NCBI RefSeq assembly: GCF_032050975.1
Contig: NZ_CP116967.1
Location: 2,663,001-2,727,000, forward strand
Origin: Candidatus Nitrospira allomarina
GTDB lineage: Bacteria > Nitrospirota > Nitrospiria > Nitrospirales > UBA8639
Length of the DNA stretch: 64,000 bases
Direction of reading: 5' to 3'
Numbering within the stretch: the stretch's first letter is position 1; each line of letters begins with the position of its first letter. The notes under the pieces are model-generated. The model saw nothing but the letters and a program-made list of their open reading frames with translations, was not told the DNA's origin and searched no databases. Both the position numbers and the translations under genes were made by a program. This document shows positions 3,618-62,680 of this stretch, piece after piece.

Positions 3618-6600
3618 GTGACTAGAAAAAAAACCCCGTCCAAGGATCGATTAGGCCCTTCGCCTTCCCTCCCACCGAAACCATCTTCAACTGTGCAAAA
3701 ACCACGGAAGTCCCTACGCCCCTCAAAGTCTCCTTCTTCTGCACCAACCCCTTCACCACCTCCCCAGGGGGGAATGACTGATGCACCGTCCAACGCTTTT
3801 CCCATCGTCGGGATCGGCGCTTCGGCCGGAGGACTCGAGGCATTGTGCCGGTTCTTTTCAACACTTCCAGACAATAGCGGAATGGGGTTTGTGGTGATCC
3901 AGCACCTGGCTCCCGATCGCGAAAGCCTTATGCCGGAATTGCTGGCGCGGAAAACCTCGCTGCCGATTCATGTCGCGGCAGATGAAACGCTAGTCGAACC
4001 CAATCATATTTATATCATTCCGCCCAATACGCAATTGAGCATCGATGGTGGGTTTCTGCGAGTGGACCGGCCTTCACAAATTCATGGCTTTCGAACGCCC
4101 GTTGATAAGTTTTTCAAATCCCTGGCCGAAGATCAAGGTCCATTTGCCATCGGGGTGATTCTGTCCGGCGCGGGGTCCGACGGAGCAGTCGGGCTTCGAT
4201 TCGTGAAGGAACATGGCGGGTTAACGATTGCCCAATCAACGGAAACGGCCCAATTTTCCGGAATGCCGACGAGTGCCATTCTGACCGGATTAATCGATTA
4301 TATCCTCCCGGTCGAAGCCATCGCGGAGGCGCTGATTCTCTATGCGAAATATTTATACGATCTCCGGGACGGAAAGGGCCTGGAAACCCTTCGTGCCGAA
4401 GCGCTGACTCACTTAGAGGTGATTTGCTCGCATCTGTACCGTCGGACCGGACACGATTTCCATGGTTACAAACGGAATACGATGGGTCGGCGGGTTCAGC
4501 GGCGCATGCAGATTCTGCACATTACCTCTCCCGCGCAATATGTCAGACGATTGCGGGAGGACCCGGAAGAAGTCGATGCGCTCTTTAAGGAGCTGTTAAT
4601 CGGTGTGACCCAATTTTTTAGAGATCCGGAAGCCTTTGCGTTTTTCTCCGACACGATCATCCCTAAGATCGTGAAATCCAAACACAACAATGAAACCATC
4701 CGGATCTGGATACCGGGTTGTTCGACGGGAGAAGAAGTCTATTCGCTCGCTATCCTTTTTTATGAATACCTCCATCGGGAACATCTTAACATTCCTCTTC
4801 AAATCTTCGGGACGGATATCGATGAGCGGGCATTGGATATTGCCCGCCGTGGGCAATATCCGGAAAGCATTCAGGAAGATGTGCTGCCCGATCGACTGTC
4901 CTTGTTCTTTGAACAGGACGGGTCCTGTTATCGGGTTGCCAAGGTGATCCGTGAGGTATGCATTTTTTCCTTTCATAATCTCGTCGGTAATCCCCCGTTT
5001 TCTCGCATGGATGTCATATCATGCCGGAACCTGTTGATCTACATGGAACCCACTCTTCAGAATCAGATGTTTGCCGTGTTTCATTATTCCCTCAACCCGG
5101 AGGGCTACCTGTTTCTCGGCGCGTCGGAACAGGCGGAAGACCAAACCCGATTCTTTCGCCCCGTGAATAAACGCTTTCGGGTATTTCAACCAAAAGAGAT
5201 CATGCGCCGCACGTTTCCCAAGTTCCCGATACAGGGACCGCGTGGCACCATGCCCACTCCGAAACCGGCTTTTTTCCCCCAGATTCAGGATCCCTTCATT
5301 CACACCTTCGATCAACTGGTCAGAGAGGAGTACGGCCCTCCCGGGGTGTTGATCGATAAAGAGTGCCAGGTGCAATACGTCTCCGGCCGGACCGGGACCT
5401 ATCTGCAGCTTCCCTCCGGTTCGGTCAACGTGAATTTGATCAATATGGTCATGCCGGATTTGCGTATGCCGTTGCGATCCGGCATTTTGAAGGCCGTGAA
5501 AACCGGCAAGGAGGTGGTCCTCCCCAATATTCAATTGACCGTGAATGATGATATGCAATCTGTGGATATCATTGTCCGTCCGCTTTTTCATGCCAAGCAA
5601 TCGTCCGATCTGCTGATGGTGGTCTTCCGTGAGAAAGGGCTGATCCGGAAACCTTCCAAAGACTCGAAGAAATACTCGAAAGGCGAGCACCGGACGATAA
5701 AGGAATTGGAGCAGGAAATTGACTCCACCAGGGAGCATTTGCAAACGGCGCTGGAAGAACTGGAGACCTCCAACCAGGAATTGAAATCTTCCAATCAGGA
5801 ATTGATGTCGGTCAATGAAGAACTGCAATCCGCGAATGAAGAATTGCAAACGTCTACCGAGGAATTGCAATCGATTAACGAAGAATTAGAAACGGTCAAT
5901 GCTCAACTGTCCGGAAAATTGGAGGAATTGGATCACGCCAATAGCGATATGGAAAATCTTTTCCGGACGACGAATATCGCCACATTATTTCTCAATGCCG
6001 ACTTATGTATTCAGAAATACACTCCGGCGGCCCAAAAAATGTTCCAGTTTTTAGATACCGATATTGGCCGACCCATTACACAATTGTCCTCATTTTCCAG
6101 AGACGAAACGTTATTGGCAGGTATTCGGGACGTGCTGCGCACCTCACGGCCCAACGAACAGACTCACCGAATTTTTCAAGACCCTCGGACATTCTTCACA
6201 CGAATGACTCCCTACCAATCCAGTGACGGTCAGACCCAGGGAGTTGTGCTGACTTTTGTGGATATTTCGAAGCTTCGCCAGGCGGAAGATCAAGTGCTCC
6301 GTTTCTCTCAACAACAGAAAGTGATGGCGGAGTTCGCACAGTTGGCGCTCCAGGAAAGAGATGTGCAGAAGGTCATGGACGAATGTGTCAGACTTCTGAG
6401 TCAGACCTTACCGATTGAAATGGCTAAAGTGCTGGAAATATTGCCGGGAGAACGGTCCCTCCTTCTTCGCGCCGGGGTAGGATGGAAAGAGGGATTGGTC
6501 GGCCAGGCCGTGGTGAGTGCCGATCAAAACTCCCAGGCAGGGTATACGCTGATAAGCCAAAAGCCGGTTATCGTCAAGGATCTATCGGCGGAAAGCCGGT

Positions 6601-7982
6601 TTTCCGGTCCTTCCCTATTGATTGATCATCAGGTGGTCAGTGGCATGAGTTGCATTATCCGGGATCAGGCAGGCAATCCGCATGGAGTCCTCGGTGTGCA
6701 TACAACATCACATAGGGAGTTCCGGGAGAAGGAGGTGGAGTTCCTCCAAGCCATGGCCAATATTCTTGCCTCGGCCATACACCGGAAAAATATCGAAACT
6801 CAACTGCAGTTCGTGACCGAATCCTTGGAACGCCGCGTGGATGAGCGGACACAGGATCTCGTTCAGCACCAACACCGACTGCGTCAAATGTCGCTAGACC
6901 TTATTCTTACCGAGCAACGGGAACGGCGGCGCATTGCCACCGAATTGCATGATTATTTAGGGCAGTTGCTGGTTGTCGGAAAGATAAAAATCAGTCAATT
7001 GCTGCAAACCGATCTTTCGAATCAGCAGGCGCCTCTTGTGCGGGAAATGGAAGAGTCTCTGGATGAGGCGTTGCAATACACTCGGGATCTCATTCCTCAA
7101 ATCAGTCCGCCCATTTTGTATGAATTCGGGTTTTTGGCGGCCGTCCGATGGTTGTCCGAAAAAATGAAACGGTATGATTTGCACGTCACGGTGGCATCCC
7201 ATGTTGATGAAGATCAATTGAATCTTTCCGAATCCGTCTCAATTATCCTGTATCAGGCCATCAGGGAATTATTGCTGAATGTGATGAAACATGCCCAGAC
7301 TCAGGAAGCTTCCATTCTGATCAATCAAGTCTCGTCAGAGGTGTTTGGAGTAGAAGTCGCGGATCGCGGATGTGGTTTTGATCTGTCCTCAACACGTGAA
7401 ACCCATTCCCCCTTTGACAAATTCGGCCTGTTGAACGTGCAAGAACGCATAGAAAGTCTTGGAGGCGAATGTGAGGTCCTTTCCAGGATCGGGGAGGGCA
7501 CTCGAGTGCTGATTAAAGTGCCTATTTCCGTGCAAGGCGCTGATGAAGAATCCCTTCAGTCCTCCTCTTCTCCCAAAGCGGTCCGGGTTTCGAATTCCCG
7601 AAAAACGGAGGAGGGTATCCGGGTTGTCCTTGCGGATGACCACCCCATATTTCGTGAAGGATTGGGCACCATGTTAAATGCCTGCCCCGATATTCAGGTG
7701 GTCGGAGAGGCCGAAAACGGCGAACAGGCTGTCGAGCTTGTTCAGACTCTTCACCCTGATGTGGTGGTGATGGATATCAATATGCCGGTGATGAACGGAA
7801 TAGAAGCCACGCGTCTCATTAAAGCCAGCCACCCGGCAGTCTATATCATCGGCTTGTCCATGCATGGGGATCAAATCGTGTCAAATAATTTTGCTGAGGC
7901 TGGAGGGGACGAATATGTGTCCAAAGGGGATTCGTTCGGTTCCTTCGCCGAGGTCATTCGATCCAGTCAAAAAAATCGATGA
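3618..7982 (+). CDS. CheB-CheR-PAS-GAF-histidine kinase-receiver hybrid
   Basis: A 1454-residue fusion. A Pro/Ser-rich leader (1-55) is followed by a CheB methylesterase domain with the Ser69 (GASAGG), His96 (VIQHLAPD) and Asp188 (SGAGSDGA) triad; a CheR methyltransferase (about 262-530, SAM loop PGCSTGEEVYS); a long coiled coil of SNQELxS/NEELQ repeats (about 690-775) typical of CheB-CheR-PAS proteins; a PAS domain (777-895); a GAF domain (905-1065); HisKA_3 with His1111 (TELHDYLGQLL); HATPase; and a NarL-type receiver with Asp1386. All catalytic residues looked for are present. No MCP, CheA or CheW is in the window, so its methylation target is unknown. GTG at 3618 is the open start; ATG at 3774 directly before the CheB domain, preceded by GGGGGGAA, is an alternative. 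Confidence 0.92.
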   Translation: MTRKKTPSKDRLGPSPSLPPKPSSTVQKPRKSLRPSKSPSSAPTPSPPPQGGMTDAPSNAFPIVGIGASAGGLEALCRFFSTLPDNSGMGFVVIQHLAPDRESLMPELLARKTSLPIHVAADETLVEPNHIYIIPPNTQLSIDGGFLRVDRPSQIHGFRTPVDKFFKSLAEDQGPFAIGVILSGAGSDGAVGLRFVKEHGGLTIAQSTETAQFSGMPTSAILTGLIDYILPVEAIAEALILYAKYLYDLRDGKGLETLRAEALTHLEVICSHLYRRTGHDFHGYKRNTMGRRVQRRMQILHITSPAQYVRRLREDPEEVDALFKELLIGVTQFFRDPEAFAFFSDTIIPKIVKSKHNNETIRIWIPGCSTGEEVYSLAILFYEYLHREHLNIPLQIFGTDIDERALDIARRGQYPESIQEDVLPDRLSLFFEQDGSCYRVAKVIREVCIFSFHNLVGNPPFSRMDVISCRNLLIYMEPTLQNQMFAVFHYSLNPEGYLFLGASEQAEDQTRFFRPVNKRFRVFQPKEIMRRTFPKFPIQGPRGTMPTPKPAFFPQIQDPFIHTFDQLVREEYGPPGVLIDKECQVQYVSGRTGTYLQLPSGSVNVNLINMVMPDLRMPLRSGILKAVKTGKEVVLPNIQLTVNDDMQSVDIIVRPLFHAKQSSDLLMVVFREKGLIRKPSKDSKKYSKGEHRTIKELEQEIDSTREHLQTALEELETSNQELKSSNQELMSVNEELQSANEELQTSTEELQSINEELETVNAQLSGKLEELDHANSDMENLFRTTNIATLFLNADLCIQKYTPAAQKMFQFLDTDIGRPITQLSSFSRDETLLAGIRDVLRTSRPNEQTHRIFQDPRTFFTRMTPYQSSDGQTQGVVLTFVDISKLRQAEDQVLRFSQQQKVMAEFAQLALQERDVQKVMDECVRLLSQTLPIEMAKVLEILPGERSLLLRAGVGWKEGLVGQAVVSADQNSQAGYTLISQKPVIVKDLSAESRFSGPSLLIDHQVVSGMSCIIRDQAGNPHGVLGVHTTSHREFREKEVEFLQAMANILASAIHRKNIETQLQFVTESLERRVDERTQDLVQHQHRLRQMSLDLILTEQRERRRIATELHDYLGQLLVVGKIKISQLLQTDLSNQQAPLVREMEESLDEALQYTRDLIPQISPPILYEFGFLAAVRWLSEKMKRYDLHVTVASHVDEDQLNLSESVSIILYQAIRELLLNVMKHAQTQEASILINQVSSEVFGVEVADRGCGFDLSSTRETHSPFDKFGLLNVQERIESLGGECEVLSRIGEGTRVLIKVPISVQGADEESLQSSSSPKAVRVSNSRKTEEGIRVVLADDHPIFREGLGTMLNACPDIQVVGEAENGEQAVELVQTLHPDVVVMDINMPVMNGIEATRLIKASHPAVYIIGLSMHGDQIVSNNFAEAGGDEYVSKGDSFGSFAEVIRSSQKNR

Positions 7983-20500: not shown

Positions 20501-20573
20501 TGGTTCTTATATTTCCCTAATCTGTTTCTAGAAAAGATTGGAGCCGATTGTTGGATATGGTTTGAGGGAATTT

Positions 20574-21191
20574 ATGCGTATGAAACCCAGTAAAGATTAT
20601 CCGGTCAAAGATTTCAAGCTCAAAGGATTGGACGGTATTTCAGATAAGACGTTAGAGATGCATTTTAAGCTTTATGAAGGGTATGTGAAAGCTACCAACT
20701 CTCTGACCAAGCAAATCGGGGAGTTTTTAATTGACGGACAAGTGGATCAGGAGGAAATGCCGGCGTATTCTGAACTCACCCGGCGGCTGGGATTTGAATA
20801 TAATGGGATGGTTCTCCATGAATTGTATTTTGAGAATATGACCTCCCAAGCTTCCAAAGCTCCCCAAGGACAGGATTCCCTGCTGAAAGGGCTTGAAGGC
20901 AGTTTTGGGAGTTTTGAAAACTGGAAAACCGATTTTTCAAGCGTAGGGAAGATGCGGGGAGTCGGCTGGGCTGTATGCAATCTCAATCCGGAAAATGGCA
21001 GGCTCTCCAACCATTGGATCAGCCTTCATGAATTTGGCAATATTGCAGGTTTTCGTCCTATTTTAGTGATGGACGTGTGGGAACATGCGTATTTGTTGGA
21101 TTTTCAACCTTCGGAACGAGGCGAATATATTGAACGTTTTCTCTCCCAAGTTCATTGGGATGTGGTTGCCAAACGCTTAGAGGGTCGATGA
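20574..21191 (+). CDS. Fe/Mn-type superoxide dismutase
   Basis: 205 residues from ATG 20574, five bases after GAGGGA. Metal ligands expected for the Fe/Mn superoxide dismutase family are all present: His30 (LEMHFKLYEGYV), His82 (VLHELYF), Asp167 and His171 (MDVWEHAYLLDF); active-site Tyr37 and the GWAVCN strand also fit. The enzyme converts superoxide to oxygen and peroxide. Deviations from textbook members are the HFKLYEGYV segment in place of HHxxHHxxYV and LHELYF in place of the usual N(H)xxFW region, so this belongs to a divergent subgroup. No export signal, so it is probably cytoplasmic. Its stop overlaps the start of a small proline-rich ORF. Confidence 0.88.
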   Translation: MRMKPSKDYPVKDFKLKGLDGISDKTLEMHFKLYEGYVKATNSLTKQIGEFLIDGQVDQEEMPAYSELTRRLGFEYNGMVLHELYFENMTSQASKAPQGQDSLLKGLEGSFGSFENWKTDFSSVGKMRGVGWAVCNLNPENGRLSNHWISLHEFGNIAGFRPILVMDVWEHAYLLDFQPSERGEYIERFLSQVHWDVVAKRLEGR

Positions 21192-21610: not shown

Positions 21611-22264
21611 ATGAGTAAAGCGCGGGTACTTTTAGCTGAAGATCACGTCCTGGTTAGTGAGGGACTGACCAAACTGCTGGAAACTGATTTCACGCTGGTG
21701 GGGACGGTTGTAGACGGTCATGCATTAGTGAAAGCCGTCAAGAAACATACACCGGACATTGCGATCATTGATATTTCATTGCCACTGTTGAATGGCTTGG
21801 AGGCCGCCCGACAAATAAAAAAATGTGAACCCCAAACAAAATTAATTTTTCTCACCATGCATTCCGAGGAACATTTTGTCCATGAGGCCTTCAAGGCCGG
21901 TGGGGTGGGGTACATTTTAAAACAATCTGCGACGGCAGAATTAGTATTTGCCATTAAGGAAGTGTACCAGGGACGCACCTACGTTTCTCCCTCAATTGCC
22001 CAGGGTCTTGTCAGTCAAGCACTGAATCCCTCTTCCAATTCAAAAAAACCCCCTCAGGAAGAGGGTCCCGCATTGACTCAGCGACAAATAGAAATCCTTC
22101 AATTGGTTGCTGAAGGAAAATCCAATAAAGACATTGCGGTCATATTAAATCTGGCCGTCAAAACCGTGGAATTTCACAAGACGCGGGTTATGCAAGTGTT
22201 GGGACTCAAAACGGCCTCCGAACTCACGAAATATGCTATTTCCAATGGAATAATTTCTGTTTGA
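21611..22264 (+). CDS. LuxR/NarL-family response regulator
   Basis: 217 residues: receiver domain (1-120) with acidic pocket Glu10-Asp11, phospho-acceptor Asp54 (IAIIDISLPLLNG), Thr (FLTMHSEE) and Lys (YILKQSA), and a C-terminal LuxR-type helix-turn-helix (ALTQRQIEILQLVAEGKSNK, then DIAVILNLAVKTVEFHKTRV). It is a likely DNA-binding output for one of the HisKA_3 kinases nearby, but no kinase is adjacent. No good ribosome site precedes ATG 21611. It is convergent with a second regulator of the same family at 22373-23032. Confidence 0.9.
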   Translation: MSKARVLLAEDHVLVSEGLTKLLETDFTLVGTVVDGHALVKAVKKHTPDIAIIDISLPLLNGLEAARQIKKCEPQTKLIFLTMHSEEHFVHEAFKAGGVGYILKQSATAELVFAIKEVYQGRTYVSPSIAQGLVSQALNPSSNSKKPPQEEGPALTQRQIEILQLVAEGKSNKDIAVILNLAVKTVEFHKTRVMQVLGLKTASELTKYAISNGIISV

Positions 22265-22372: not shown

Positions 22373-23032
22373 CTAGTCAAGGGGAGATATCCCTAATTTA
22401 ACCGCGTATTTCGTAAGATCTGCCTTGGAATGAAGGCCAAGGGCCTGCACAATTTGCATCTTATGGAACGCGACCGTGCTTTGAGAAATGTTCAACAAGT
22501 TGGCTATGTCTTTCGCCGAGAAGCCTTGAGCCACGAGCCTTAATACCTCCTGCTGCCTGGGAGTCAATTTTCCGGAAAGTTCGGTGCCCGGCATACCATC
22601 CATTTGGGCAAAAACCGCATTCTGTACCTCCTCAGGAATTAAGGGAGAGAGGTATTTCTGTTTTTCCTGAACCTGGTTAATCGCTGATAATAACTCGTTC
22701 CCTGCCGTTTGCTTCGGGACATACCCTTCTCCGCCGCTACGAAACGCCTCCATGATAAAAGTAGGTTCTAAATGCATGGACACAAAAATTATTTTAATGG
22801 ATGGACATATCGTTTTTAACATCCGAGCAGCTTCGTACCCGTTTTGGTCAGGCATTGAGATGTCCATGAGGAGGATGTCGGGCTTGGTTTGCCGGATTTG
22901 GCTGACCAAATCGCTTGCACTATTGGCCTCCCCCACGATGTCATGATGGGGTTCAAGCAGTTTTTTGCAGCTCTCTAAAACAAGAATATGGTCGTCAACA
23001 AGGAATAATCGTGCTCGCTTGGTTGTATTCAT
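22373..23032 (-). CDS. LuxR/NarL-family response regulator
   Basis: 219 residues: receiver with Asp13-Asp14, phospho-acceptor Asp57 (ILLMDISMPDQNG), Ser switch (FVSMHLEPT) and Lys (YVPKQTAG), followed by a LuxR helix-turn-helix (LTPRQQEVLRLVAQGFSAK, DIANLLNISQSTVAFHKMQI). It is a paralogue of the convergent regulator at 21611-22264. It carries an AGGGTT motif upstream, so its own expression may be part of the proposed regulon. The kinase is not identified; the ABM-PAS kinase at 24212-25690 is the nearest upstream on the same strand. Confidence 0.9.
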   Translation of the reverse strand: MNTTKRARLFLVDDHILVLESCKKLLEPHHDIVGEANSASDLVSQIRQTKPDILLMDISMPDQNGYEAARMLKTICPSIKIIFVSMHLEPTFIMEAFRSGGEGYVPKQTAGNELLSAINQVQEKQKYLSPLIPEEVQNAVFAQMDGMPGTELSGKLTPRQQEVLRLVAQGFSAKDIANLLNISQSTVAFHKMQIVQALGLHSKADLTKYAVKLGISPLD

Positions 23033-23450: not shown

Positions 23451-23747
23451 TTACTCCTTTTCAATCTTCACGACTTCTCCTGAATGAGCATCCACATAGA
23501 CTTCTCTGGTCTTTTCATTTTCGTCAACGATTTTCACTTCGAAAACAGTCTTGCCGTGCTCTTTTTCCAATTCGGCATCCACAGCCTTACCCTTCACCGT
23601 GGTCATGGCTTTTTCCACAGCCTCGACAAGTGTGATTTGAGTGCCCTTCAATAATTCGGCTTTGTCATCACCAAACAAGGCAAAAGCCGAGCTGACGGGC
23701 AGAAGACACGTGGCGAACGTGAGACTGAGAATTAAACGATTCTTCAT
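23451..23747 (-). CDS. Exported PepSY-domain protein
   Basis: 98 residues: a signal peptide (RLILSLTFATCLLPVSSAFA) then one PepSY domain (about 35-98) with the TLVEAVEKAMTTVKGKAVDA helix, the LEKEHGKTVFEVKIV strand and the closing VYVDAHSGEVVKIEKE motif that defines the family. PepSY proteins are believed to inhibit or modulate peptidases, or to be cell-envelope sensors. Start ATG 23747 follows AAAGGAGTCCGTT. Monocistronic with a strong hairpin behind it. Confidence 0.88.
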   Translation of the reverse strand: MKNRLILSLTFATCLLPVSSAFALFGDDKAELLKGTQITLVEAVEKAMTTVKGKAVDAELEKEHGKTVFEVKIVDENEKTREVYVDAHSGEVVKIEKE

Positions 23748-24211: not shown

Positions 24212-25690
24212 CTAGGTAGACAATGGTATCGAGATGGTGATGGTTGTGCCCTTCTGAGGAGAGGAAATGATATCTAAGTGTCCTTTTACGGCCTTGATGC
24301 GTTCGCGATAAAAGAAGAGGCCCAGATGCCCTTGTTCCTGTTCGAGTTGCTTGACTTCGGGATTAAACCCGACTCCGGGGTCCGACACCCTTATGAGTAG
24401 CTCTCGTTCCGAAGGACATTCCCAAGAAATCGATGCGTTTGCGACTCCTGCATGTTTCAGGACATTAAACAGTAACTCCCGAACGGTTTTGTAAACCACG
24501 ATGCTAATATTTTCTGCAACCTGCACCGAGGGGACGACCTCAGGACCCGACACGGTTAAACCAAAGCGTTGCATATCCGCAATGAGGTATTGGAGTGCGG
24601 CCATTAATCCCTGCTGGTGCAATATGGCGGGGTGTAAATCCGAGATCAGCGTTCGGGTAAAAGACAATGATTGATCGATTATACCGTCAACCTCCTGAAT
24701 GAGCCTTGAATGGGCCGGAGTGATGGTGTTTGGGTCAATTTGGACGAGCTTGAGCCTACAGGCAATGAGCATCTGGGCAAGATAATCATGTAATTCATTT
24801 GCCAAATGTTGGCGTTCACGTTGTTCGACAAGAGCCAATTCCACCAACATGGCCCGCAATTGTTCCTGATGGAACACCAGATCTTTTGTCCGTTCGGTGA
24901 CCAGCTGATTTAAATATGAATTATTTTCAGACAGCCGGTTCCCGCTTTTGACCTCCTCTCGCATCTTGACCGTCATTTCATTTTGAATCTGCATAAGTTC
25001 CACGAACGCCCGCTGGTTGAACTTTTCCGGTTCTTCCCCGATTAAAATGATCGCCCGAGAAGAGGTTTTCTGGACTAAGCAGTCGAATGTGTGGGGATTG
25101 TGAGACGAATCGATAAAATTGAGCTGGACCCGCTCGTGGGAGTTGGAAATCCCAATTTCAAGAACATCCTGAAGGCGATGTTGGTCCGTTGTGGTGAGAA
25201 AATCCCAGATGGTTTTGGTATCAAATTCTGTTTTGGATATATTGAGTTTATGTAACAGGACGTCGTTATAGACCAGAATTCGTCCATCGGGACTGATCAC
25301 ACAATACACGATAGTATCTGTTTGATTGAGAAACGCTTCAAGGAGCAAGATGGAATCACCTAGAAAATCTTGAAGCTCACCTTGTTCTTCACGGGGAGGA
25401 AGACGTTCCAGTTCAAGAATTTGAGTGATGGTAGGATCCAACTTGAGGCCCTTGGGAAGCATCTCGTGGGAAAGGCGATGTTCGGGACTTTTGTGCCAGG
25501 CGTGAAAGGTTTCACGATCGGTCCAACGCGTCACCAGGTGAAAAATACTTGGATCGGTGGGAGGGTTATACACTTCTATTCCTAAAAATCCCGGAACGGC
25601 CTCTACCAACCTGGGACGTTCTTGAAAGGCTTTGGCCACGTCCCGTTCCAACCCGTTTGCGACCTTAAATCGTGAAATAACAAGCACCAT
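24212..25690 (-). CDS. ABM-PAS-HisKA_3 sensor kinase
   Basis: 492 residues. Residues 1-95 match the antibiotic-biosynthesis-monooxygenase (ABM) ferredoxin-like fold: ISRFKVANG at the start, PGFLGIEVYNP, then TRWTDRETFHAWHKSPEH, the region that in IsdG-type haem-degrading enzymes carries the catalytic Trp and haem His. A PAS domain follows (about 115-230, VISPDGRILVYNDVLLHKL), a coiled coil, HisKA_3 (RERQHLANELHDYLAQML) and HATPase (ELLFNVLKHAG, DPGVGF). No receiver is attached. An ABM domain as the input of a kinase is unusual. It lies 13 bases after the cobalamin-binding protein gene, so the two form an operon. Whether the ABM domain binds haem or another ligand is unknown. Confidence 0.88.
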   Translation of the reverse strand: MVLVISRFKVANGLERDVAKAFQERPRLVEAVPGFLGIEVYNPPTDPSIFHLVTRWTDRETFHAWHKSPEHRLSHEMLPKGLKLDPTITQILELERLPPREEQGELQDFLGDSILLLEAFLNQTDTIVYCVISPDGRILVYNDVLLHKLNISKTEFDTKTIWDFLTTTDQHRLQDVLEIGISNSHERVQLNFIDSSHNPHTFDCLVQKTSSRAIILIGEEPEKFNQRAFVELMQIQNEMTVKMREEVKSGNRLSENNSYLNQLVTERTKDLVFHQEQLRAMLVELALVEQRERQHLANELHDYLAQMLIACRLKLVQIDPNTITPAHSRLIQEVDGIIDQSLSFTRTLISDLHPAILHQQGLMAALQYLIADMQRFGLTVSGPEVVPSVQVAENISIVVYKTVRELLFNVLKHAGVANASISWECPSERELLIRVSDPGVGFNPEVKQLEQEQGHLGLFFYRERIKAVKGHLDIISSPQKGTTITISIPLST

Positions 25691-25703
25691 TATTGTGTTC
25701 CCA

Positions 25704-26756
25704 TCATGCCAAAAGGGACGTTAAAGAGCGTAAATCGTACGCAAACCCATCCGCCCCGATTTCTCGAAAGACATCGGGCAGTGATCGAAATGCGGATCCG
25801 CCAACAAGAATGCGAGGGGTATACTCCGGGGGAAAATGGGTTCTGATATCGTTGATCAAATCTCTCACAATGGGGACCTTGAGAACCATCGTCGCGGAAA
25901 TACCCACAAGTGTGGGCCGGAATTCCTTGATCATTTGAAGGATTGCCTGGTGGGGGATATTGACACCTAAAAACCGGATATCCCAGCCCTGCGATTCGAG
26001 CAGGTCCGCCACCATGTGGGATCCGACTTGATGGAGTTCACCTTCCACACCGGTGATGATCCCTTTCCCTTGAAAAGGTTGTGCAGGTTTGACGCGGGGA
26101 TAGACGTTGGCCATTACATATTGGGTGATGGCCGTAGCCACGTGTTCTTGGGCGACCGAGATACGGTTGGATTCCCAGAGTCTGCCGATTTCATATAACG
26201 ATTCTTGAAAGAGTTCTACGTAGACATCGGAGAGAGAATCGGTCATTGAAAACGCCTCGAACGCAATCGTTCCGGCAGCATGGCGATTTCCGGCCAATAA
26301 AGCTTGAAGAAAGACCTCCTGATGCAATGCTAACGGAGAGCGTGGGTGCGGGGCCGGGGGAGCTTCCGGTCGTAGAGACTCATGAGGGCTCTCTATTAAA
26401 TGGGCCCGCACGACCTTTTTTTCGGAATCGGTAAGATGGGGCTCCAATGCATGAGAGATTTGATGCAAAAACTTCTGGAGTAAACTCTGGGAAATATTTC
26501 TTGCCTGGAGCACATTGGTTGTCCAACGTACATATTGTCTGAAAGTTTCCTCCGTTCCAAATTCAATGGCCGTTCTGAGAAAAGTCAAGTGGTAATGGGC
26601 GTCGGTGGCACAGTGTGCCTTCCCTGATTCTCCATACCCACCTGTCTCGGGATGATGTTGAAAGAACTGTGTCGTAATAACTTCAATCACATCCCCTTCA
26701 AGGAACTTCAATTTTTCTGCCAGCCGGTGTCGGTCGTTATTGTTGACATCTTTCAT
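25704..26756 (-). CDS. CarH-like cobalamin-binding sensor without DNA-binding domain
   Basis: 350 residues. The N-terminal 120 residues are an unassigned helical domain containing GGYGESGKAHCATDAHYHL. After a Pro-rich linker comes a B12-binding cap (about 145-225) with Trp194 and Glu204-His205, a W-x9-EH motif as in the light sensor CarH (Trp131, Glu141, His142). A Rossmann B12 domain follows (about 230-350) with the ExHxxG form of the lower-ligand motif (GELHQVG, His242), FLGVNIP, and GGSAF. CarH carries a MerR-type DNA-binding domain that is absent here; the downstream gene is a histidine kinase, so output may pass through it. Light sensing via adenosylcobalamin is an inference. No clear ribosome site. 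Confidence 0.82.
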   Translation of the reverse strand: MKDVNNNDRHRLAEKLKFLEGDVIEVITTQFFQHHPETGGYGESGKAHCATDAHYHLTFLRTAIEFGTEETFRQYVRWTTNVLQARNISQSLLQKFLHQISHALEPHLTDSEKKVVRAHLIESPHESLRPEAPPAPHPRSPLALHQEVFLQALLAGNRHAAGTIAFEAFSMTDSLSDVYVELFQESLYEIGRLWESNRISVAQEHVATAITQYVMANVYPRVKPAQPFQGKGIITGVEGELHQVGSHMVADLLESQGWDIRFLGVNIPHQAILQMIKEFRPTLVGISATMVLKVPIVRDLINDIRTHFPPEYTPRILVGGSAFRSLPDVFREIGADGFAYDLRSLTSLLA

Positions 26757-34449: not shown

Positions 34450-35292
34450 TTAAAACGAGACGTCCCATTGCAGGCGGACCCGCTGCTCATGTTGGTTCTG
34501 ACCTGCCGGCTGGGCCAGCGTAAGCCAGGAGCCATCGAGGGTGATCTTGTTTCGATGCCCGGCAAAAAACCAATTGATGGCGGTCGTGTATTCCTGCCGC
34601 CGGTCATCGGGAGCGGAGATGTTGGGGTCGACAAATGCATAGCGGAAGGCCACTTCCAACGGTTTGGGCACCGCCGGAATGAGATAGTGGGGGAAATACC
34701 CGACCTGCGAATAACTCCCCATCATGTTGGTCTTATAGCCCGGCGCACCTTCCGGATAACTGTCGTCCTTGACCTCTTTCCAATGGTATTCATGTTGAAT
34801 GGAAAGCCCCCGCCATTTGAAGGCAAATTCCTCCACCATGCCCTGCACACGGTATTGCCCGGCTGTCGCAGCCGAATCGGACGTATAGGGCACACCGGCG
34901 GAATTGTCTTCGGGCAACGTGCCGCATCCGCTCGAGGACCATCGCGTACATTTGCCGATAGTGGTGTAGGCCCCGAAGGCCAGGCTTCCCGTCGGTTGCT
35001 CATGAAATTCCACGTCACTTTGTGACCATTTCAGATCCCGGCCTAAAAAGTTCCATTGGTACCGTCCGAAATACATCATGTTGGCGTCGTCGTTGGCTTC
35101 TCCCCGGCCGGATCCGGTAAAGACGCCGGCATAATACCGGGAGTCAAAGGCCGTACCGGGTGCCAAATGGCCATAGAGCATGGCTCCGACCTGTCGGTCG
35201 ATGGTAAAGATCTCATTGACGATTGATCGTTCCACGAACTGCTGAGTGCCGGACGAGTCTCTTCGTTCCCGGTTATAGTCGACTTTCCATTG
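34450..35292 (-). repeat. Near-identical tract, copy A (porin 3' part)
   Basis: 843 bases matching 36097-36939 without a gap (constant offset 1647); by eye about fifteen single-base differences. It starts exactly at the stop codon. Confidence 0.85.
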
Positions 35293-35823
35293 GCCGAGTT
35301 GGAGTGAGAGGAATTTGAACTTTTCTAAGCTAATCCGCCAGTCGATTAATCTGGTCGATCCAGGTGACCCGCCGGCATTGGAAGTGGATTGCAAGTCCAA
35401 CTCGAAATAGTACTTGATCCAGGGTTGATACCCATGCCCGCCGATTTTCATGCGAACCCGGCGAAGTTCCAGAGTACTTTGAGGACCCGCATTAAAATCT
35501 GCGGCAGTTATCGGATCTCCGTTAGTGGGATACGTAAAGCGACCCTGAAACCGCCATTGAATTTGAGTGGCAAATTTGCCATCCTTTGTTTTAAATTCAA
35601 ACCCCTTATTTCCCCAACCGACCTCAACGGGAAATTGATCGTCAAATGCTTTTTGTTGCTCCACAGCTTTTTTCTCTTCTGCAGCCTCAATCTTGATCCA
35701 ATCTTCTTTCGTAATCACCTCTTTTTCACGCAACACATCAATCAGGGCGTCACTTGCCTGGACATTCAGCTGAAAAAACAAGCTAAGGCACGCCATTGTC
35801 GTGAACAACCAGAAAACTTTCAT
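34450..35823 (-). CDS. OprO/OprP-type phosphate-selective porin (distal copy)
   Basis: 457 residues. Signal peptide (VFWLFTTMACLSLFFQLNVQA), a short charged coil with VITKEDWIKIEAAEEKKAVE, then a Porin_O_P-type beta-barrel with VEWG/VGWGNKGFEFKTKDGKFA, LRRVRMKIGGHGYQPWIKYY, and a terminal aromatic strand ending WDVSF. These porins form trimeric, anion-selective (phosphate or polyphosphate) pores. The gene belongs to the minus-strand series pstS-C-A-B, porin, porin, phoU remnant. Its last 843 bases are almost identical to the other porin gene, while the first 530 are only similar. A Pho-box-like site upstream suggests its own promoter. Confidence 0.88.
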   Translation of the reverse strand: MKVFWLFTTMACLSLFFQLNVQASDALIDVLREKEVITKEDWIKIEAAEEKKAVEQQKAFDDQFPVEVGWGNKGFEFKTKDGKFATQIQWRFQGRFTYPTNGDPITAADFNAGPQSTLELRRVRMKIGGHGYQPWIKYYFELDLQSTSNAGGSPGSTRLIDWRISLEKFKFLSLQLGQWKVDYNRERRDSSGTQQFVERSIVNEIFTIDRQVGAMLYGHLAPGTAFDSRYYAGVFTGSGRGEANDDANMMYFGRYQWNFLGRDLKWSQSDVEFHEQPTGSLAFGAYTTIGKCTRWSSSGCGTLPEDNSAGVPYTSDSAATAGQYRVQGMVEEFAFKWRGLSIQHEYHWKEVKDDSYPEGAPGYKTNMMGSYSQVGYFPHYLIPAVPKPLEVAFRYAFVDPNISAPDDRRQEYTTAINWFFAGHRNKITLDGSWLTLAQPAGQNQHEQRVRLQWDVSF

Positions 35824-36096: not shown

Positions 36097-36939
36097 TTAA
36101 AACGAGACGTCCCATTGCAGGCGGACCCGTTGCTCATGTTGGTTCTGACCTGCCGGCTGGGCCAGCGTAAGCCAGGAGCCATCGAGGGTGATCTTGTTTC
36201 GATGCCCGGCAAAAAACCAATTGATGGCGGTCGTGTATTCCTGCCGCCGGTCATCGGGAGCGGAGATGTTGGGGTCGACAAATGCATAGCGGAAGGCCAC
36301 TTCCAACGGTTTGGGCACCGCCGGAATGAGGTAGTGGGGGAAATACCCGACCTGCGAATAACTCCCCATCATGTTGGTCTTATAGCCCGGCGCACCTTCC
36401 GGATAACTGTCGTCCTTGACCTCTTTCCAATGGTATTCATGTTGAATGGAAAGCCCCCGCCATTTGAAGGCAAATTCCTCTACCATGCCTTGCACACGGT
36501 ATTGCCCGGCTGTCGCAGCCGAATCGGACGTATAGGGCACACCGGCGGAATTGTCTTCGGGCAACGTGCCGCATCCGCTCGAGGACCATCGCGTACATTT
36601 GCCGATGGTGGTGTAGGCCCCAAAGGCGAGGCTTCCTGTGGGGAGCTCATGAAATTCCACGTCACTTTGTGACCATTTCAGATCCCGGCCTAAAAAGTTC
36701 CATTGGTACCGTCCGAAATACATCATGTTGGCGTCGTCGTTGGCTTCTCCCCGGCCGGATCCGGTAAAGACGCCGGCATAATACCGGGAGTCAAAGACCG
36801 TACCGGGTGCCAAATGGCCATAGAGCATGGCTCCGACCTGTCGGTCGATGGTAAAGATCTCATTGACGATTGATCGTTCCACGAACTGCTGGTTGCCGGA
36901 CGAGTCTCTTCGTTCCCGGTTATAGTCGACTTTCCATTG
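36097..36939 (-). repeat. Near-identical tract, copy B (porin 3' part)
   Basis: Partner of 34450-35292. Encodes the C-terminal 280 residues of the proximal porin, with only a few substitutions (for example Ala to Val in APGTxFDS and Gln to Leu in FHExPTG). Confidence 0.85.
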
Positions 36940-37479
36940 CCCCACTTGCAGGGAAAGGAACGAAAATTTTTCGAGCGAGATCCGCCAATCGAGCAATTGA
37001 GGACTGACCCCGGAATTGCCGGATTCCGAAGTGGACTGCCAATTCATTTCGAAATAATATCTAATCCAGGGTTGAAAGCCATGCCCGCCGATTTTCATGC
37101 GAACCCGGCGAAGTTCAAAGGTACTCTGTGGATCTTCATTAAAGTCTGCAGCAGAGATAGGATCTGAATCCGTGGGATAGGACCAACGTCCTTGGAACCG
37201 CCATTGAATTTGGGTGGCAAATTTGCCATCCTTGGTTGCAAATTCAAATCCTCTTCTTCCCCACTCCACGGAAACGGGAAATTCTTGGTCCATACGGGTA
37301 TTGAGTTCTTGCTCTCTTTTTTCCTGCTCGGCCTGAATACGGACCCAATCTTCTTTGGTAATGATGCCTTTTTCCAGTAACACATTCTCCAGACTGTCTT
37401 CATAGAGAGGGTCCACGGCCCAGGCCTGGGTATGGGCTAACAGCCCGTAACATAGCAATGCCAAAAACAGGTGTTTCAT
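36097..37479 (-). CDS. OprO/OprP-type phosphate-selective porin (proximal copy)
   Basis: 460 residues from ATG 37479 (GGAG nine bases upstream; a TTG at 37494 would add five). Signal peptide (LFLALLCYGLLAHTQAWA), a charged coil GIITKEDWVRIQAEQEKRE, then the same Porin_O_P barrel as the distal copy: VEWGRRGFEFATKDGKFA, LRRVRMKIGGHGFQPWI, C-terminal WDVSF. It begins 86 bases after pstB, so it may be read from the pst operon. Family role: passive uptake of phosphate or polyphosphate across the outer membrane. Confidence 0.88.
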   Translation of the reverse strand: MKHLFLALLCYGLLAHTQAWAVDPLYEDSLENVLLEKGIITKEDWVRIQAEQEKREQELNTRMDQEFPVSVEWGRRGFEFATKDGKFATQIQWRFQGRWSYPTDSDPISAADFNEDPQSTFELRRVRMKIGGHGFQPWIRYYFEMNWQSTSESGNSGVSPQLLDWRISLEKFSFLSLQVGQWKVDYNRERRDSSGNQQFVERSIVNEIFTIDRQVGAMLYGHLAPGTVFDSRYYAGVFTGSGRGEANDDANMMYFGRYQWNFLGRDLKWSQSDVEFHELPTGSLAFGAYTTIGKCTRWSSSGCGTLPEDNSAGVPYTSDSAATAGQYRVQGMVEEFAFKWRGLSIQHEYHWKEVKDDSYPEGAPGYKTNMMGSYSQVGYFPHYLIPAVPKPLEVAFRYAFVDPNISAPDDRRQEYTTAINWFFAGHRNKITLDGSWLTLAQPAGQNQHEQRVRLQWDVSF

Positions 37480-37564
37480 TCCTATGTTCTCCAATGAAAT
37501 GTGACGGAAGGAGACCGAAGTTGAAGTGAGAAATTACAATATTAACAGGTGTGGCACAAGAGAT

Positions 37565-52801: not shown

Positions 52802-55006
52802 ATGTCTGATTTATCTGTCCTGTTGGTGATTCCTCCTCTGACTCAACTCAATACGCCATATCCGTCCACGGCCTATTTGACGGGGTTTTTGCGGTCACAA
52901 GGGTATCGCACGCATCAGGCTGATGTGGGCATTGAAATGGTGTTGGCCCTCTTCTCGCGTGGTGGCCTGAGCCGGGTTTTTGCCGAACTCCGGAAGGCTT
53001 CCATTGACGAACTGCCTGGTGAGGCGCGGCAAATGCTGAGTCTGGAGCGGGCGTATGTCGAGACGATTAATCCGGTGATTAGCTTTTTGCAGGGTCGAAA
53101 TCCCACCTTGGCTTCGCGCATTTGTCAGGGCACCTTCCTTCCCCAAGGTCCACGCTTTTCCTTAGGAAGTTCAGAAAATCAAGATGGGAAACATCGTGCA
53201 TACCATCAAGCCGACCAGGCCAAGCATCTGGCAACCTTGTATCTTGAAGATCTTGCCGACCTGGTTCAGGCCACCATTACCCCCCACTTTGCGTTGAGCC
53301 GCTATGCCGAATCCATTGCCATGCAGGCGAATTCCTATGACCGTCTAGAGGAAGCCTTGGCCCAACCCCTAAGTCTCACTGACGAGTGGATGGTGGACGC
53401 GCTCTGGCGGCATGTGGACCGGCATCAGCCCGGTGTCGTCGGGTTTTCGGTGCCGTTTCCAGGCAATCTGTATGGCGCCCTTCGTATGGGTCAACAATTG
53501 CGGGTTAAAAGGCCGGAAATCAAAGTCGTGCTTGGGGGAGGATATCCCAATACGGAGTTGCGACGGATGCGGGACCCTCGATTATTTGAAGTCGTTGATT
53601 TCGTGACCCTTGATGATGGGGAGCGGCCCTTTCTCTGTCTGTTGGAATACCTGGAAGGAAAACGGAGAGAGCCCGATCTGTGCCGGACCTTTCTTCGTTC
53701 AGGTCAGAATGTGGTCTGGCAGAACGGAGCCGATGAGCCGGACGTTTCACAGGTCGAAGTGGGAACCCCGACGTACGATGGATTGCCTCTCAATCAGTAT
53801 ATTTCCGTGTTGGATACGCTGAATCCCATGCATCGGCTCTGGTCTGATGGACATTGGAATAAATTAACGGTGGCGCATGGGTGTTACTGGAAGCAATGTA
53901 CGTTCTGCGATGTGGGGCTGGATTACATCGGCCGGTATGAAGTTTCACCGGGCGAAATGTTGGTGGATCGGATCGAAGCCCTGATCGCCGAAACGGGACG
54001 ATGCGGGTTTCACTTTGTGGATGAGGCCGCTCCGCCGGCGGGATTAAAGAATCTGGCGCTATCTCTGCTCGAACGGGAGGTCACCATTTCCTGGTGGGGA
54101 AACGTCCGGTTTGAACCGGCGTTTACCCCGGACCTCTGCCGTCTGCTCGCCGCCTCCGGCTGCATTGCCTTGAGCGCCGGTTTGGAAGCGGCGTGTGATC
54201 GTCTGCTGGCCTTGGTTAAAAAAGGTATCACCGTTGATCAGACGGTTCGGGTGGTTCAGGCCTGCCGGGACGCGGAGATTCTGGTGCATGCCTATCTCAT
54301 GTATGGAATTCCCAGTGAGACGATAGGGGAAACTATTGAAAGCCTCGAACGGGTTCGCCAATTATTTGCGCATGACCTCATTCAATCAGCCTTCTGGCAT
54401 CGGTTTACCACCACCGCCCATAGTCCGATCGGCTTACATCCTCAAGCCTATGGCATTCACCTCATCGGACCGGCATTCGGAGGGTTCGCGGAAAATGATC
54501 TGGTTCATGGGGATGACCTGGCATCAATACCGGAATGGATCGGGGAGGGTCTGAGAGCGGCGCTTTGGCATTACAAGGAAGGGTTGGAATTGACCCGGGA
54601 TGTCCGTGAATGGTTTCCGGAGCGGGTCCCGAAACCAAAGGTTAAACGCACCTGGGTCAAGCAGGTCCTGGAGAGCGAAGAGCGGGAGGATCATTCCAGG
54701 TTAGAGCGGAAATTCGTCTGGATCGGCGGGCAGCCGGATGTTGATCGAGGAAATGGCGAACAATACAAAATTATTTTGCCGAATCGAACAACAGATGAAG
54801 AAGTGAGGCTGAAGCGAGGCCAAGGGGAATGGTTTCTGAATCTGATCGAGCGTGCCGTGCCCGTGCACCAAGCCGGGGGACATCGGTATCCTATTTATAA
54901 AGAAGTTCGGGCGGGCTTTCCGTTTGGCGGACCAAAGGGGTTTGATAAGTGGTGGCAGTCCGCTTCTGCCCACAAAGCCAGAACCGTCGGCCTCCTATTG
55001 GTATAA
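52802..55006 (+). CDS. B12-type radical SAM protein
   Basis: 734 residues. N-terminal region (1-340) resembles the cobalamin-binding Rossmann fold of B12-type radical SAM proteins (VLLVIPPL, VVGFSVPFPGNLYGALRM, KVVLGGGYPN, FVTLDDGE). The radical SAM core starts with the cluster Cys361-x4-Cys366-x2-Cys369 (GCYWKQCTFCD), one residue longer than the standard CxxxCxxC, followed by LSAGLEAACDRLLALVKKG. C-terminal 230 residues are unassigned. Possible roles include methylation or rearrangement of a peptide or lipid. No good ribosome site precedes ATG 52802. It lies 190 bases from the ATP-grasp/alpha-E pair on the same strand, so association with it is possible but unproven. Confidence 0.82.
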   Translation: MSDLSVLLVIPPLTQLNTPYPSTAYLTGFLRSQGYRTHQADVGIEMVLALFSRGGLSRVFAELRKASIDELPGEARQMLSLERAYVETINPVISFLQGRNPTLASRICQGTFLPQGPRFSLGSSENQDGKHRAYHQADQAKHLATLYLEDLADLVQATITPHFALSRYAESIAMQANSYDRLEEALAQPLSLTDEWMVDALWRHVDRHQPGVVGFSVPFPGNLYGALRMGQQLRVKRPEIKVVLGGGYPNTELRRMRDPRLFEVVDFVTLDDGERPFLCLLEYLEGKRREPDLCRTFLRSGQNVVWQNGADEPDVSQVEVGTPTYDGLPLNQYISVLDTLNPMHRLWSDGHWNKLTVAHGCYWKQCTFCDVGLDYIGRYEVSPGEMLVDRIEALIAETGRCGFHFVDEAAPPAGLKNLALSLLEREVTISWWGNVRFEPAFTPDLCRLLAASGCIALSAGLEAACDRLLALVKKGITVDQTVRVVQACRDAEILVHAYLMYGIPSETIGETIESLERVRQLFAHDLIQSAFWHRFTTTAHSPIGLHPQAYGIHLIGPAFGGFAENDLVHGDDLASIPEWIGEGLRAALWHYKEGLELTRDVREWFPERVPKPKVKRTWVKQVLESEEREDHSRLERKFVWIGGQPDVDRGNGEQYKIILPNRTTDEEVRLKRGQGEWFLNLIERAVPVHQAGGHRYPIYKEVRAGFPFGGPKGFDKWWQSASAHKARTVGLLLV

Positions 55007-61117: not shown

Positions 61118-62680
61118 ATGAAGCGGGCATTAGCTATATTGGGAACGGGCTCCGATGTGGGAAAAAGTCTGGTCACGGCGGGCTTGTGTCGATTATTGCA
61201 TCGGGCTGGAGTCAGAGTGGCCCCGTTTAAAGCACAAAATATGTCGCTGAATTCCTTTGTCACGACGGATGGAGGAGAGATGGGAAGGGCTCAAGTGCTT
61301 CAGGCTCAGGCCTGTGGGTTGGCTCCGCATGTGGACATGAATCCGATTTTGTTGAAGCCGGAGGCCGACGCCAAATCTCAAGTGATTGTTCAAGGACAAG
61401 TGTGGCGAAGTCAGAATGCCCGGGATTATTTCGAGCGGAAATCCCAGTTGGTTGAATTTGTGAAAGGGAGTTATGACCGGCTGTCCAAGCAGTATGACGT
61501 GATGGTGATTGAAGGGGCGGGGAGTGCCGCAGAAATGAATCTGCGGGATCGCGATATTGTGAACTGGCCGATAGTCGAGATGGCCGATGCGGCAGTGGTG
61601 TTAGTGGCGGATATCGATCGGGGGGGCGTGTTTGCGCAGGTCATCGGCACGATGGATTTATTAGCGTCGGAAGAACGGCAGCGGGTGATCGGGGTTGTCA
61701 TTAATAAATTTCGGGGGGATCTGACGTTGTTTAAAGATGGTGTCACCATTATAGAAGAACGCACGGGCGTCCCGGTGTTAGGCGTATTGCCGTATCTACG
61801 AGATCTGGAATTGGATCAAGAGGACAGCGTAGATATTGATCGATTGCGAAAGACGTCTTTTGAGGCAGATACCGTCAATATCGCAGTGGTGTTGCTGCCT
61901 CATATGAGCAACTTTACGGATTTTAATCAGGTGGCTGCGGAACCGGATGTGGCGCTTCGCTTTGTGGCGTCACCCCAGGAGCTTTTTGGGGCGGATGCCG
62001 TTATTCTGCCGGGAAGCAAAACGACGATTGCCGATTTGGAATATCTGCGGAAGGGTGGATTCGAAGAGGCGCTTATGGCGCATGTTCAACGTGGAAACGA
62101 GATGATGGGTGTCTGTGGGGGATTTCAGATGCTAGGCAAAGAGATCACGGATCCACAGCATGTGGAAACCGGCGGTTCGACGAAAGGATTGGGGTTGCTG
62201 GAAGTCGAGACTGAATTGCTTGCTCACAAAAAAACCGTGCAAGTCCGTGCCCGCTCCGTACCGGAGTCCTGGGGGCATGAATATCTGGTTGAGGGGTATG
62301 AAATTCATATGGGGAACACGAGGACTGTGCATCGCATTCCGTCCTGCTTTCGGATTCTTACGGGTCAGGTGCCACGTTCTGTTGATGAGCCAGAATCAAG
62401 AGTCGATGGAGCGATGAGTCTGGACGGGCGCGTCTGGGGGACCTACATTCATGGGGTCTTTGACCAACCGGAATTTCGTCGTCAATGGTTGAATCGGGTC
62501 CGGGTTCGCAAGGGTCTCGCGCCCCTTGGCTTGGAAATTTCAGAGGAGGTTTCACAGCGAATGTCACAGGCATTGAATCGTTGGGCTGACCATCTAGAGG
62601 CCCATCTTGATGTGAAACTCATTTTTTCAGCATTGGGGTTAGAGGGTTCTTCTCCAGACCGGCCCCATACATCGAAATGA
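61118..62680 (+). CDS. cobQ: Cobyric acid synthase
   Basis: 520 residues. N-terminal dethiobiotin-synthetase-like domain with P-loop GTGSDVGKS and VAPFKAQNMSLNS; GATase-1-like domain with nucleophile Cys in MGVCGGFQML and the EGYEIHMGNT His region. This is CobQ/CbiP, which amidates adenosyl-cobyrinic acid diamide at four positions using glutamine and ATP. ATG 61118 follows GAGGAAGCGGGCATAG. It sits 60 bases before a promoter-like -10 of the next gene. Confidence 0.95.
   Translation: MKRALAILGTGSDVGKSLVTAGLCRLLHRAGVRVAPFKAQNMSLNSFVTTDGGEMGRAQVLQAQACGLAPHVDMNPILLKPEADAKSQVIVQGQVWRSQNARDYFERKSQLVEFVKGSYDRLSKQYDVMVIEGAGSAAEMNLRDRDIVNWPIVEMADAAVVLVADIDRGGVFAQVIGTMDLLASEERQRVIGVVINKFRGDLTLFKDGVTIIEERTGVPVLGVLPYLRDLELDQEDSVDIDRLRKTSFEADTVNIAVVLLPHMSNFTDFNQVAAEPDVALRFVASPQELFGADAVILPGSKTTIADLEYLRKGGFEEALMAHVQRGNEMMGVCGGFQMLGKEITDPQHVETGGSTKGLGLLEVETELLAHKKTVQVRARSVPESWGHEYLVEGYEIHMGNTRTVHRIPSCFRILTGQVPRSVDEPESRVDGAMSLDGRVWGTYIHGVFDQPEFRRQWLNRVRVRKGLAPLGLEISEEVSQRMSQALNRWADHLEAHLDVKLIFSALGLEGSSPDRPHTSK

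What the first reader, a model, noticed from the sequence alone, without database searches (positions are those of the whole stretch)
24212..26756. CarH-like cobalamin sensor paired with an ABM-PAS histidine kinase
The first protein keeps the CarH cap motif W-x9-EH (Trp194, Glu204-His205) and a lower-ligand ExHxxG motif (His242), but lacks the DNA-binding domain through which CarH works; the next gene, 13 bases on, is a kinase. I infer a light- or cobalamin-responsive sensor acting through phosphorylation. The residue after Trp194 is Glu, where CarH is reported to have the His that binds cobalamin after light exposure, so the photochemistry could differ.
Basis: partly seen in the sequence, partly recalled or inferred. 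Interest (0 to 1): 0.7.

Follow-up and report, generated by a model that had tools for sequence, protein, structure and literature searches.

The report
Photocobilin light sensor with partner kinase
A non-photosynthetic Nitrospirales bacterium carries a predicted light sensor that joins a vitamin B12 domain to a domain shaped like the light-harvesting pigments of cyanobacteria, encoded directly upstream of a partner kinase whose front end resembles a heme-degrading enzyme.

Summary
The sequence observation is right: a 350-aa cobalamin protein (25704-26756, minus) lies 13 bases upstream of an ABM-PAS-HisKA_3 kinase (24212-25690, minus), with Trp194, Glu204-His205, His242 and Glu195 as described. 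Residues 1-121 model as a phycobiliprotein-type globin (pLDDT 84.6; VIA Z 16.4, rmsd 2.2 A over 121/121 residues to allophycocyanin) with Cys49 and Asp52 at the bilin-site positions. The protein is therefore a photocobilin (photoglobin + B12 domain); its best PDB matches are photocobilins, not CarH. The four-part B12 light signature is complete. The ABM kinase occurs in exactly the 7 of 98 relatives with the photocobilin, and a NarL-type regulator (22373-23032) follows in all checked same-genus genomes. Remote relatives pair with a kinase (Azospirillum; Nitrospirota G212, with a heme oxygenase gene alongside) or a GGDEF protein (Ilyobacter). Light-to-kinase signalling is well supported but untested. 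The unusual part is the kinase's IsdG/HmuQ-like ABM domain, which keeps Trp and His but has Ser for the catalytic Asn; it may sense heme or bilin. New variant of a known kind.

The parts
25704..26756 (-). photocobilin-type sensor, 350 aa (photoglobin + B12 four-helix domain + B12 Rossmann domain)
   Evidence: Pfam; PDB; fold
26394..26756 (-). N-terminal photoglobin (phycobiliprotein-like globin), residues 1-121
   Evidence: AF2 pLDDT 84.6, pTM 0.78; Foldseek top 50 all phycobiliproteins or smURFP; VIA Z 16.4, rmsd 2.2 A, 121 residues
26601..26612 (-). C49-A-T-D52, aligned with the bilin-attachment CxRD motif of allophycocyanin
   Evidence: HMMER alignment; C49 and D52 invariant in 6 close orthologs; in 12 relatives Cys in 10, Asp in 11
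26091..26333 (-). B12 four-helix (cap) domain, residues 142-222
   Evidence: PF02607 1.6e-14, residues 147-216
26142..26177 (-). W194-x9-E204-H205 adenosyl-contact motif; residue after Trp is Glu195
25707..26075 (-). B12-binding Rossmann domain, residues 228-350
   Evidence: PF02310 1.3e-16, residues 231-336
26031..26033 (-). His242, predicted lower axial cobalt ligand (G239-E-L-H242)
   Evidence: invariant in 12 relatives
24212..25690 (-). partner sensor kinase ABM-PAS-HisKA_3-HATPase, 492 aa
25400..25690 (-). ABM domain, residues 1-97: HmuQ/MhuD/IsdG-like; Ser6 (catalytic Asn position), Trp65, His75
   Evidence: most conserved part of the kinase, 75% identical where the phospho-acceptor and ATPase domains are 55%
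25031..25378 (-). PAS-like region, residues 105-220
   Evidence: PF13426 E 0.0034, below gathering cut-off
24626..24817 (-). HisKA_3 phospho-acceptor domain with H301
   Evidence: PF07730 4.2e-8; H301 invariant
24218..24496 (-). HATPase_c domain, N and G boxes intact
   Evidence: PF02518 1.7e-11
22373..23032 (-). NarL-type response regulator, probable partner (receiver Asp57)
   Evidence: follows the kinase on the same strand in 6 same-genus relatives; in the genus, orthologs occur only in genomes with the kinase
21611..22264 (+). second NarL-type response regulator, opposite strand; membership uncertain
   Evidence: neighbour in all same-genus loci seen
61118..62680 (+). CobQ-type cobyric acid synthase: local cobalamin synthesis capacity (context only)
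   Evidence: CobB/CobQ-type glutamine amidotransferase and CbiA domains

Best explanation
The first gene encodes a photocobilin: an N-terminal photoglobin joined to a CarH-type adenosylcobalamin domain. In the dark it should hold adenosylcobalamin (base-off, His242 below, Trp194/Glu204/His205 around the adenosyl group) and probably a bilin in the globin, held by Asp52 and possibly attached at Cys49. Green light absorbed by B12, or red light passed on from the bilin, breaks the Co-C bond, and loss of the adenosyl group changes the shape or dimer state. Glu195 in place of CarH His132 predicts a water-ligated rather than bis-His light state. The protein then acts through contact with the co-encoded ABM-PAS-HisKA_3 kinase, changing its phosphorylation at His301 and phosphate transfer to the NarL-type regulator at 22373-23032 (Asp57). 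The ABM domain, an IsdG/HmuQ relative with an altered triad (S-W-H), is probably a dimerising heme- or bilin-binding input domain. Shown here: domains, folds, motifs, gene order, co-inheritance. Inferred: chromophores, photochemistry, protein contact, direction of the effect, target genes.
For: Globin fold of residues 1-121 and weak but correctly placed sequence matches to SasPcob (0.0033, W78 on Trp296) and allophycocyanin (0.043, C49 on the bilin Cys). B12 domains and the complete light signature GxxW, EH, GxxH, GxxxP (PMC11796333). Best PDB matches are photocobilins. Gene pair with constant 13-15 base gap in relatives; ABM kinase in exactly the 7 of 98 relatives with the photocobilin. Response regulator co-inherited (apparent exception G004 has the kinase cut off by its contig end). 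Remote homologs of the same domain order sit next to a histidine kinase (Azospirillum L057, L060, L061; G212 L064) or GGDEF protein (Ilyobacter L059); G212 also has a heme oxygenase 94 bases upstream. Genome encodes a PduO-type adenosyltransferase and CobQ. Standalone photocobilins act on a separate enzyme in vitro (PMC10979010).
Against: No biochemistry. No HO-1-type heme oxygenase in G000 or the relatives carrying the pair, so the bilin source is uncertain; a HutZ-like protein (L083 380-868) is a candidate, below its curated cut-off. The globin-B12 interface was not modelled (full-length model pLDDT 67, pTM 0.46). The kinase's PAS/coil region is not demonstrably homologous to that of the remote partner kinases (hhalign probability 0.4%). 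The regulator is 1179 bases from the kinase here (about 310 in others).
Confidence: 0.72

Rival explanations
1. The protein senses cobalamin level or redox/oxygen state rather than light: adenosylcobalamin occupancy, not photolysis, controls the kinase, and the globin is structural or has lost bilin binding, as largely in AbDPcob.
For: Nitrospirales are not phototrophs (general knowledge); no HO-1-type heme oxygenase and no phytochrome in the genome; AbDPcob binds biliverdin poorly (PMC10979010).
Against: All four light-signature elements are kept. Asp52, Cys49 and Trp78 are invariant in the close orthologs, whereas AbDPcob, which binds biliverdin weakly, has replaced the Asp. A sister system in the phylum has a heme oxygenase gene beside it.
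Confidence: 0.18
2. The kinase ABM domain makes the bilin: an IsdG/HmuQ-like domain degrades heme and hands the product to the adjacent photoglobin, replacing the missing HO-1-type heme oxygenase.
For: ABM matches HmuQ (4.8e-10), other NCBIfam heme oxygenases and MhuD/IsdG structures. It is found only in genomes with the photocobilin among 98 relatives, is the most conserved part of the kinase, and those genomes lack HO-1, whereas G212, with HO-1 in the operon, has a partner kinase without ABM.
Against: The catalytic Asn required in IsdG-family enzymes (PMC5557675) is Ser in all six orthologs. Scores are far below the NCBIfam cut-offs. IsdG and MhuD make staphylobilin or mycobilin, not biliverdin (PMC5557675). 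A HutZ-like protein offers another route.
Confidence: 0.1
3. The two genes are neighbours without functional coupling.
For: No experiment links them.
Against: Constant gap, complete co-occurrence across 98 relatives, and recurrence of the photocobilin-plus-kinase or GGDEF pairing in other phyla.
Confidence: 0.04

Closest known systems
Photocobilins (SasPcob 8J2W/8J2X, AbDPcob 8J2Y; PMC10979010)
   Same: B12 four-helix + Rossmann domain with W-EH and lower-His motifs plus a phycobiliprotein-like globin in one chain; best PDB sequence matches; standalone photocobilins can act on a separate enzyme
   Different: Globin is N-terminal here (C-terminal in SasPcob); Cys at the bilin-attachment position, said to be absent in the two characterised photocobilins; partner is an ABM-PAS-HisKA_3 kinase; Glu195 where SasPcob has Gln and AbDPcob Tyr
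Photoglobins (Schneider et al. 2022, not held; cited in PMC10151467)
   Same: Globin-B12 fusions proposed as photosensors in signal transduction; PMC10151467 reports a CXQD motif in photoglobins, so a Cys here is not new; C-x-T-D in this protein
   Different: The ABM-fused kinase is not mentioned in the papers I could read; the photoglobin paper itself was not available
CarH (TtCarH 5C8A-5C8F)
   Same: Adenosylcobalamin domain with W-x9-EH, lower His and GxxxP
   Different: No MerR DNA-binding domain; Glu instead of His after the Trp; extra globin; weaker sequence match (2.9e-6)
IsdG/HmuQ/MhuD heme-degrading ABM proteins
   Same: ABM domain with Trp65 and His75 at catalytic positions
   Different: Catalytic Asn replaced by Ser6 in all orthologs; fused to a histidine kinase

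Membership tests
photocobilin | CarH-type B12 domain with light signature GxxW, EH, GxxH, GxxxP | tested here: met
   G191-W194, E204-H205, G239-H242, G264-P268
photocobilin | bilin-type (phycobiliprotein-like) globin domain in the same chain | tested here: met
   residues 1-121:
photocobilin | Trp at the SasPcob Trp296 position of the bilin pocket | tested here: met
   W78 aligned directly with SasPcob Trp296
photocobilin | bilin-binding Asp (SasPcob Asp270) | tested here: inconclusive
   D52 is aligned with the phycobiliprotein motif Asp; its match to Asp270 itself is an ungapped extrapolation 9 residues beyond the aligned stretch
photocobilin | binds adenosylcobalamin and biliverdin; green/red photoconversion | not testable with these tools
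   needs purified protein
CarH | N-terminal MerR-type DNA-binding domain | tested here: not met
   N-terminus is a globin; no HTH found
CarH | His after the motif Trp (His132) for the bis-His light state | tested here: not met
   Glu195
IsdG-family heme oxygenase (ABM domain) | ABM domain related to IsdG/HmuQ | tested here: met
   PF03992 3.9e-17; HmuQ 4.8e-10; MhuD, IsdG
IsdG-family heme oxygenase (ABM domain) | Asn-Trp-His catalytic triad | tested here: not met
   Ser6-Trp65-His75 in all six orthologs (PMC5557675)
HisKA_3 sensor histidine kinase | phospho-acceptor His and intact ATPase boxes | tested here: met
   H301, N409, D437/G439/G441, G454-G457

The most novel reading that the evidence does not exclude
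A two-protein sensor in which three tetrapyrrole-related inputs meet: B12 and a (possibly Cys-attached) bilin in the photocobilin, and heme or its breakdown product in the kinase's IsdG-like ABM domain, which either supplies the bilin or gates the light signal by heme availability.
Probability: 0.15. Interest if true: 0.78.

Novelty: new variant of a known kind. Interest (0 to 1): 0.55.

Why it matters
How standalone photocobilins pass on their signal in the cell is unclear; here a kinase and regulator partner are indicated by gene order and strict co-inheritance, so it can be tested directly. It also places a phycobiliprotein-type globin in chemolithotrophic Nitrospirales, and it suggests a possible link between heme or bilin supply and light signalling through the ABM domain.

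Tried and rejected
Rejected: CarH membership (no HTH, no His after Trp); plain B12 sensor with a featureless N-terminus (the N-terminus is a globin); covalent-bilin Cys as a novelty (PMC10151467 already reports CXQD in photoglobins). 'No heme oxygenase at all' was softened after finding a HutZ-like protein. PF14518 'Haem_oxygenas_2' hits (4 in the genome) were not counted as heme oxygenases: from my own knowledge this is a fold superfamily with other activities. The photoglobin paper (PMC8717448) is not held. The full-length model was too weak to judge the globin-B12 interface.

Full report
OBSERVATION. On the minus strand the window encodes a 350-aa protein (25704-26756) and, 13 bases downstream, a 492-aa protein (24212-25690). 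Pfam confirms B12-binding_2 and B12-binding in the first protein, and ABM, HisKA_3 and HATPase_c in the second, with a PAS match below cut-off.

WHAT THE SENSOR IS. The best solved relatives are the photocobilins SasPcob (8J2X/8J2W, E about 4e-29) and, lower, AbPcob (8J2Y, 1.7e-14); CarH chains follow at 2.9e-6 and worse. Photocobilins join a CarH-type B12 domain to a biliverdin-binding globin and respond to green and, with bilin, red light (PMC10979010). The N-terminal 121 residues have no Pfam family over its cut-off. Modelled alone from a 7-sequence alignment they give a confident helical fold (pLDDT 84.6, pTM 0.78). All 50 top Foldseek matches are phycobiliproteins or the biliverdin protein smURFP; VIA gives Z 16.4, rmsd 2.2 A over all 121 residues to allophycocyanin, above the range noted there for unrelated helical models. 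A profile of the domain also finds SasPcob (0.0033) and allophycocyanin (0.043), placing W78 on SasPcob Trp296 and C49/D52 on the bilin-attachment CxRD motif. D52 matches SasPcob Asp270 only by ungapped extrapolation. C49 and D52 are invariant in the six close orthologs; in 12 wider relatives Cys occurs in 10 and Asp in 11. PMC10151467 reports a CXQD motif in photoglobins, so the Cys is not new, although PMC10979010 states that its photocobilins lack it.

LIGHT SIGNATURE. The signature derived for light-responsive B12 domains (GxxW, EH, GxxH, GxxxP; PMC11796333) is complete, and the residues are invariant in 12 relatives apart from the first Gly of GxxH (G239; 10 of 12). Glu195 replaces CarH His132. 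In SasPcob this residue is Gln and in AbDPcob Tyr, and the SasPcob light state is water/hydroxide-ligated (PMC11796333, PMC10979010), so a non-bis-His light state is expected rather than exotic.

THE KINASE AND REGULATOR. The kinase is intact at H301 and the ATP-binding boxes. In all relatives where the junction is visible the two genes are adjacent with a 13-15 base gap. Among 98 related genomes the photocobilin occurs in seven and the ABM kinase in exactly the same seven; the naive Fisher p of 7e-11 ignores shared ancestry. Orthologs of the NarL-type regulator at 22373-23032 occur in seven of 21 genomes of the genus, all carrying the kinase; the apparent exception G004 has the kinase running off its contig end. 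In three relatives the regulator starts about 310 bases after the kinase, because the intervening PepSY gene is not there. This makes it the likely partner.

REMOTE RELATIVES. Proteins with the same domain order occur in Azospirillum (31-35% identity) followed by a histidine kinase, Skermanella, and Ilyobacter followed by a GGDEF protein. In G212, another Nitrospirota family, the operon is heme oxygenase (PF01126, 1.2e-55), photocobilin (31% identity), histidine kinase. Coupling of this sensor type to a kinase or cyclase thus recurs, and the heme oxygenase supports a bilin in the group.

CHROMOPHORE SUPPLY. The genome encodes a PduO-type adenosyltransferase and CobQ (window 61118-62680). It has no HO-1-type heme oxygenase and no phytochrome. 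A HutZ-like protein (L083 380-868, close to HutZ and HugZ but under the curated cut-offs) is present in the genus genomes tested and was not found in G037; it could make biliverdin.

THE ABM DOMAIN. It matches HmuQ (4.8e-10) and MhuD/IsdG structures. IsdG-family enzymes need Asn-Trp-His (PMC5557675); here the residues are Ser6, Trp65 and His75, in all six orthologs. The domain is the best-conserved part of the kinase (75% identity to G037 against 55% for the phospho-acceptor and ATPase domains). An enzyme making the bilin is possible but disfavoured; a heme- or bilin-binding input domain is likelier.

VERDICT. Observation confirmed, interpretation upgraded from 'CarH-like' to photocobilin with a dedicated kinase. 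Novelty lies in the ABM-fused partner kinase and its setting, not in the sensor type. All biochemical steps remain inferred.

Noticed in passing
34450-35823 and 36097-37494: Two adjacent phosphate-selective porin O/P genes, about 89% identical at DNA level over 1300 bases and with near-identical C-terminal halves, next to a phosphate transport cluster: recent duplication or gene conversion.
   Followed up: partly
3618-7982: 1454-aa fusion CheB-CheR-PAS-GAF-HisKA_3-HATPase-receiver in one chain.
   Followed up: partly
52802-55006: Radical SAM protein with a weak B12-binding match, in the same window as the photocobilin and CobQ.
   Followed up: no
23451-23747: PepSY-domain protein lies between the kinase and its probable regulator here and in some relatives, but upstream of the sensor gene in L037.
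   Followed up: partly
20538-21191: Fe/Mn-type superoxide dismutase gene near the two response regulators, kept in the same-genus loci seen.
   Followed up: no
59605-61014: 469-aa secreted-looking protein with no Pfam match at E 1e-5.
   Followed up: no
L003 1093-1992 and L004 1129-2148 (same genome): Two proteins with an N-terminal MerR-like helix-turn-helix and a B12 domain, probable CarH-type regulators, so the genome has at least three candidate B12 photosensors.
   Followed up: partly
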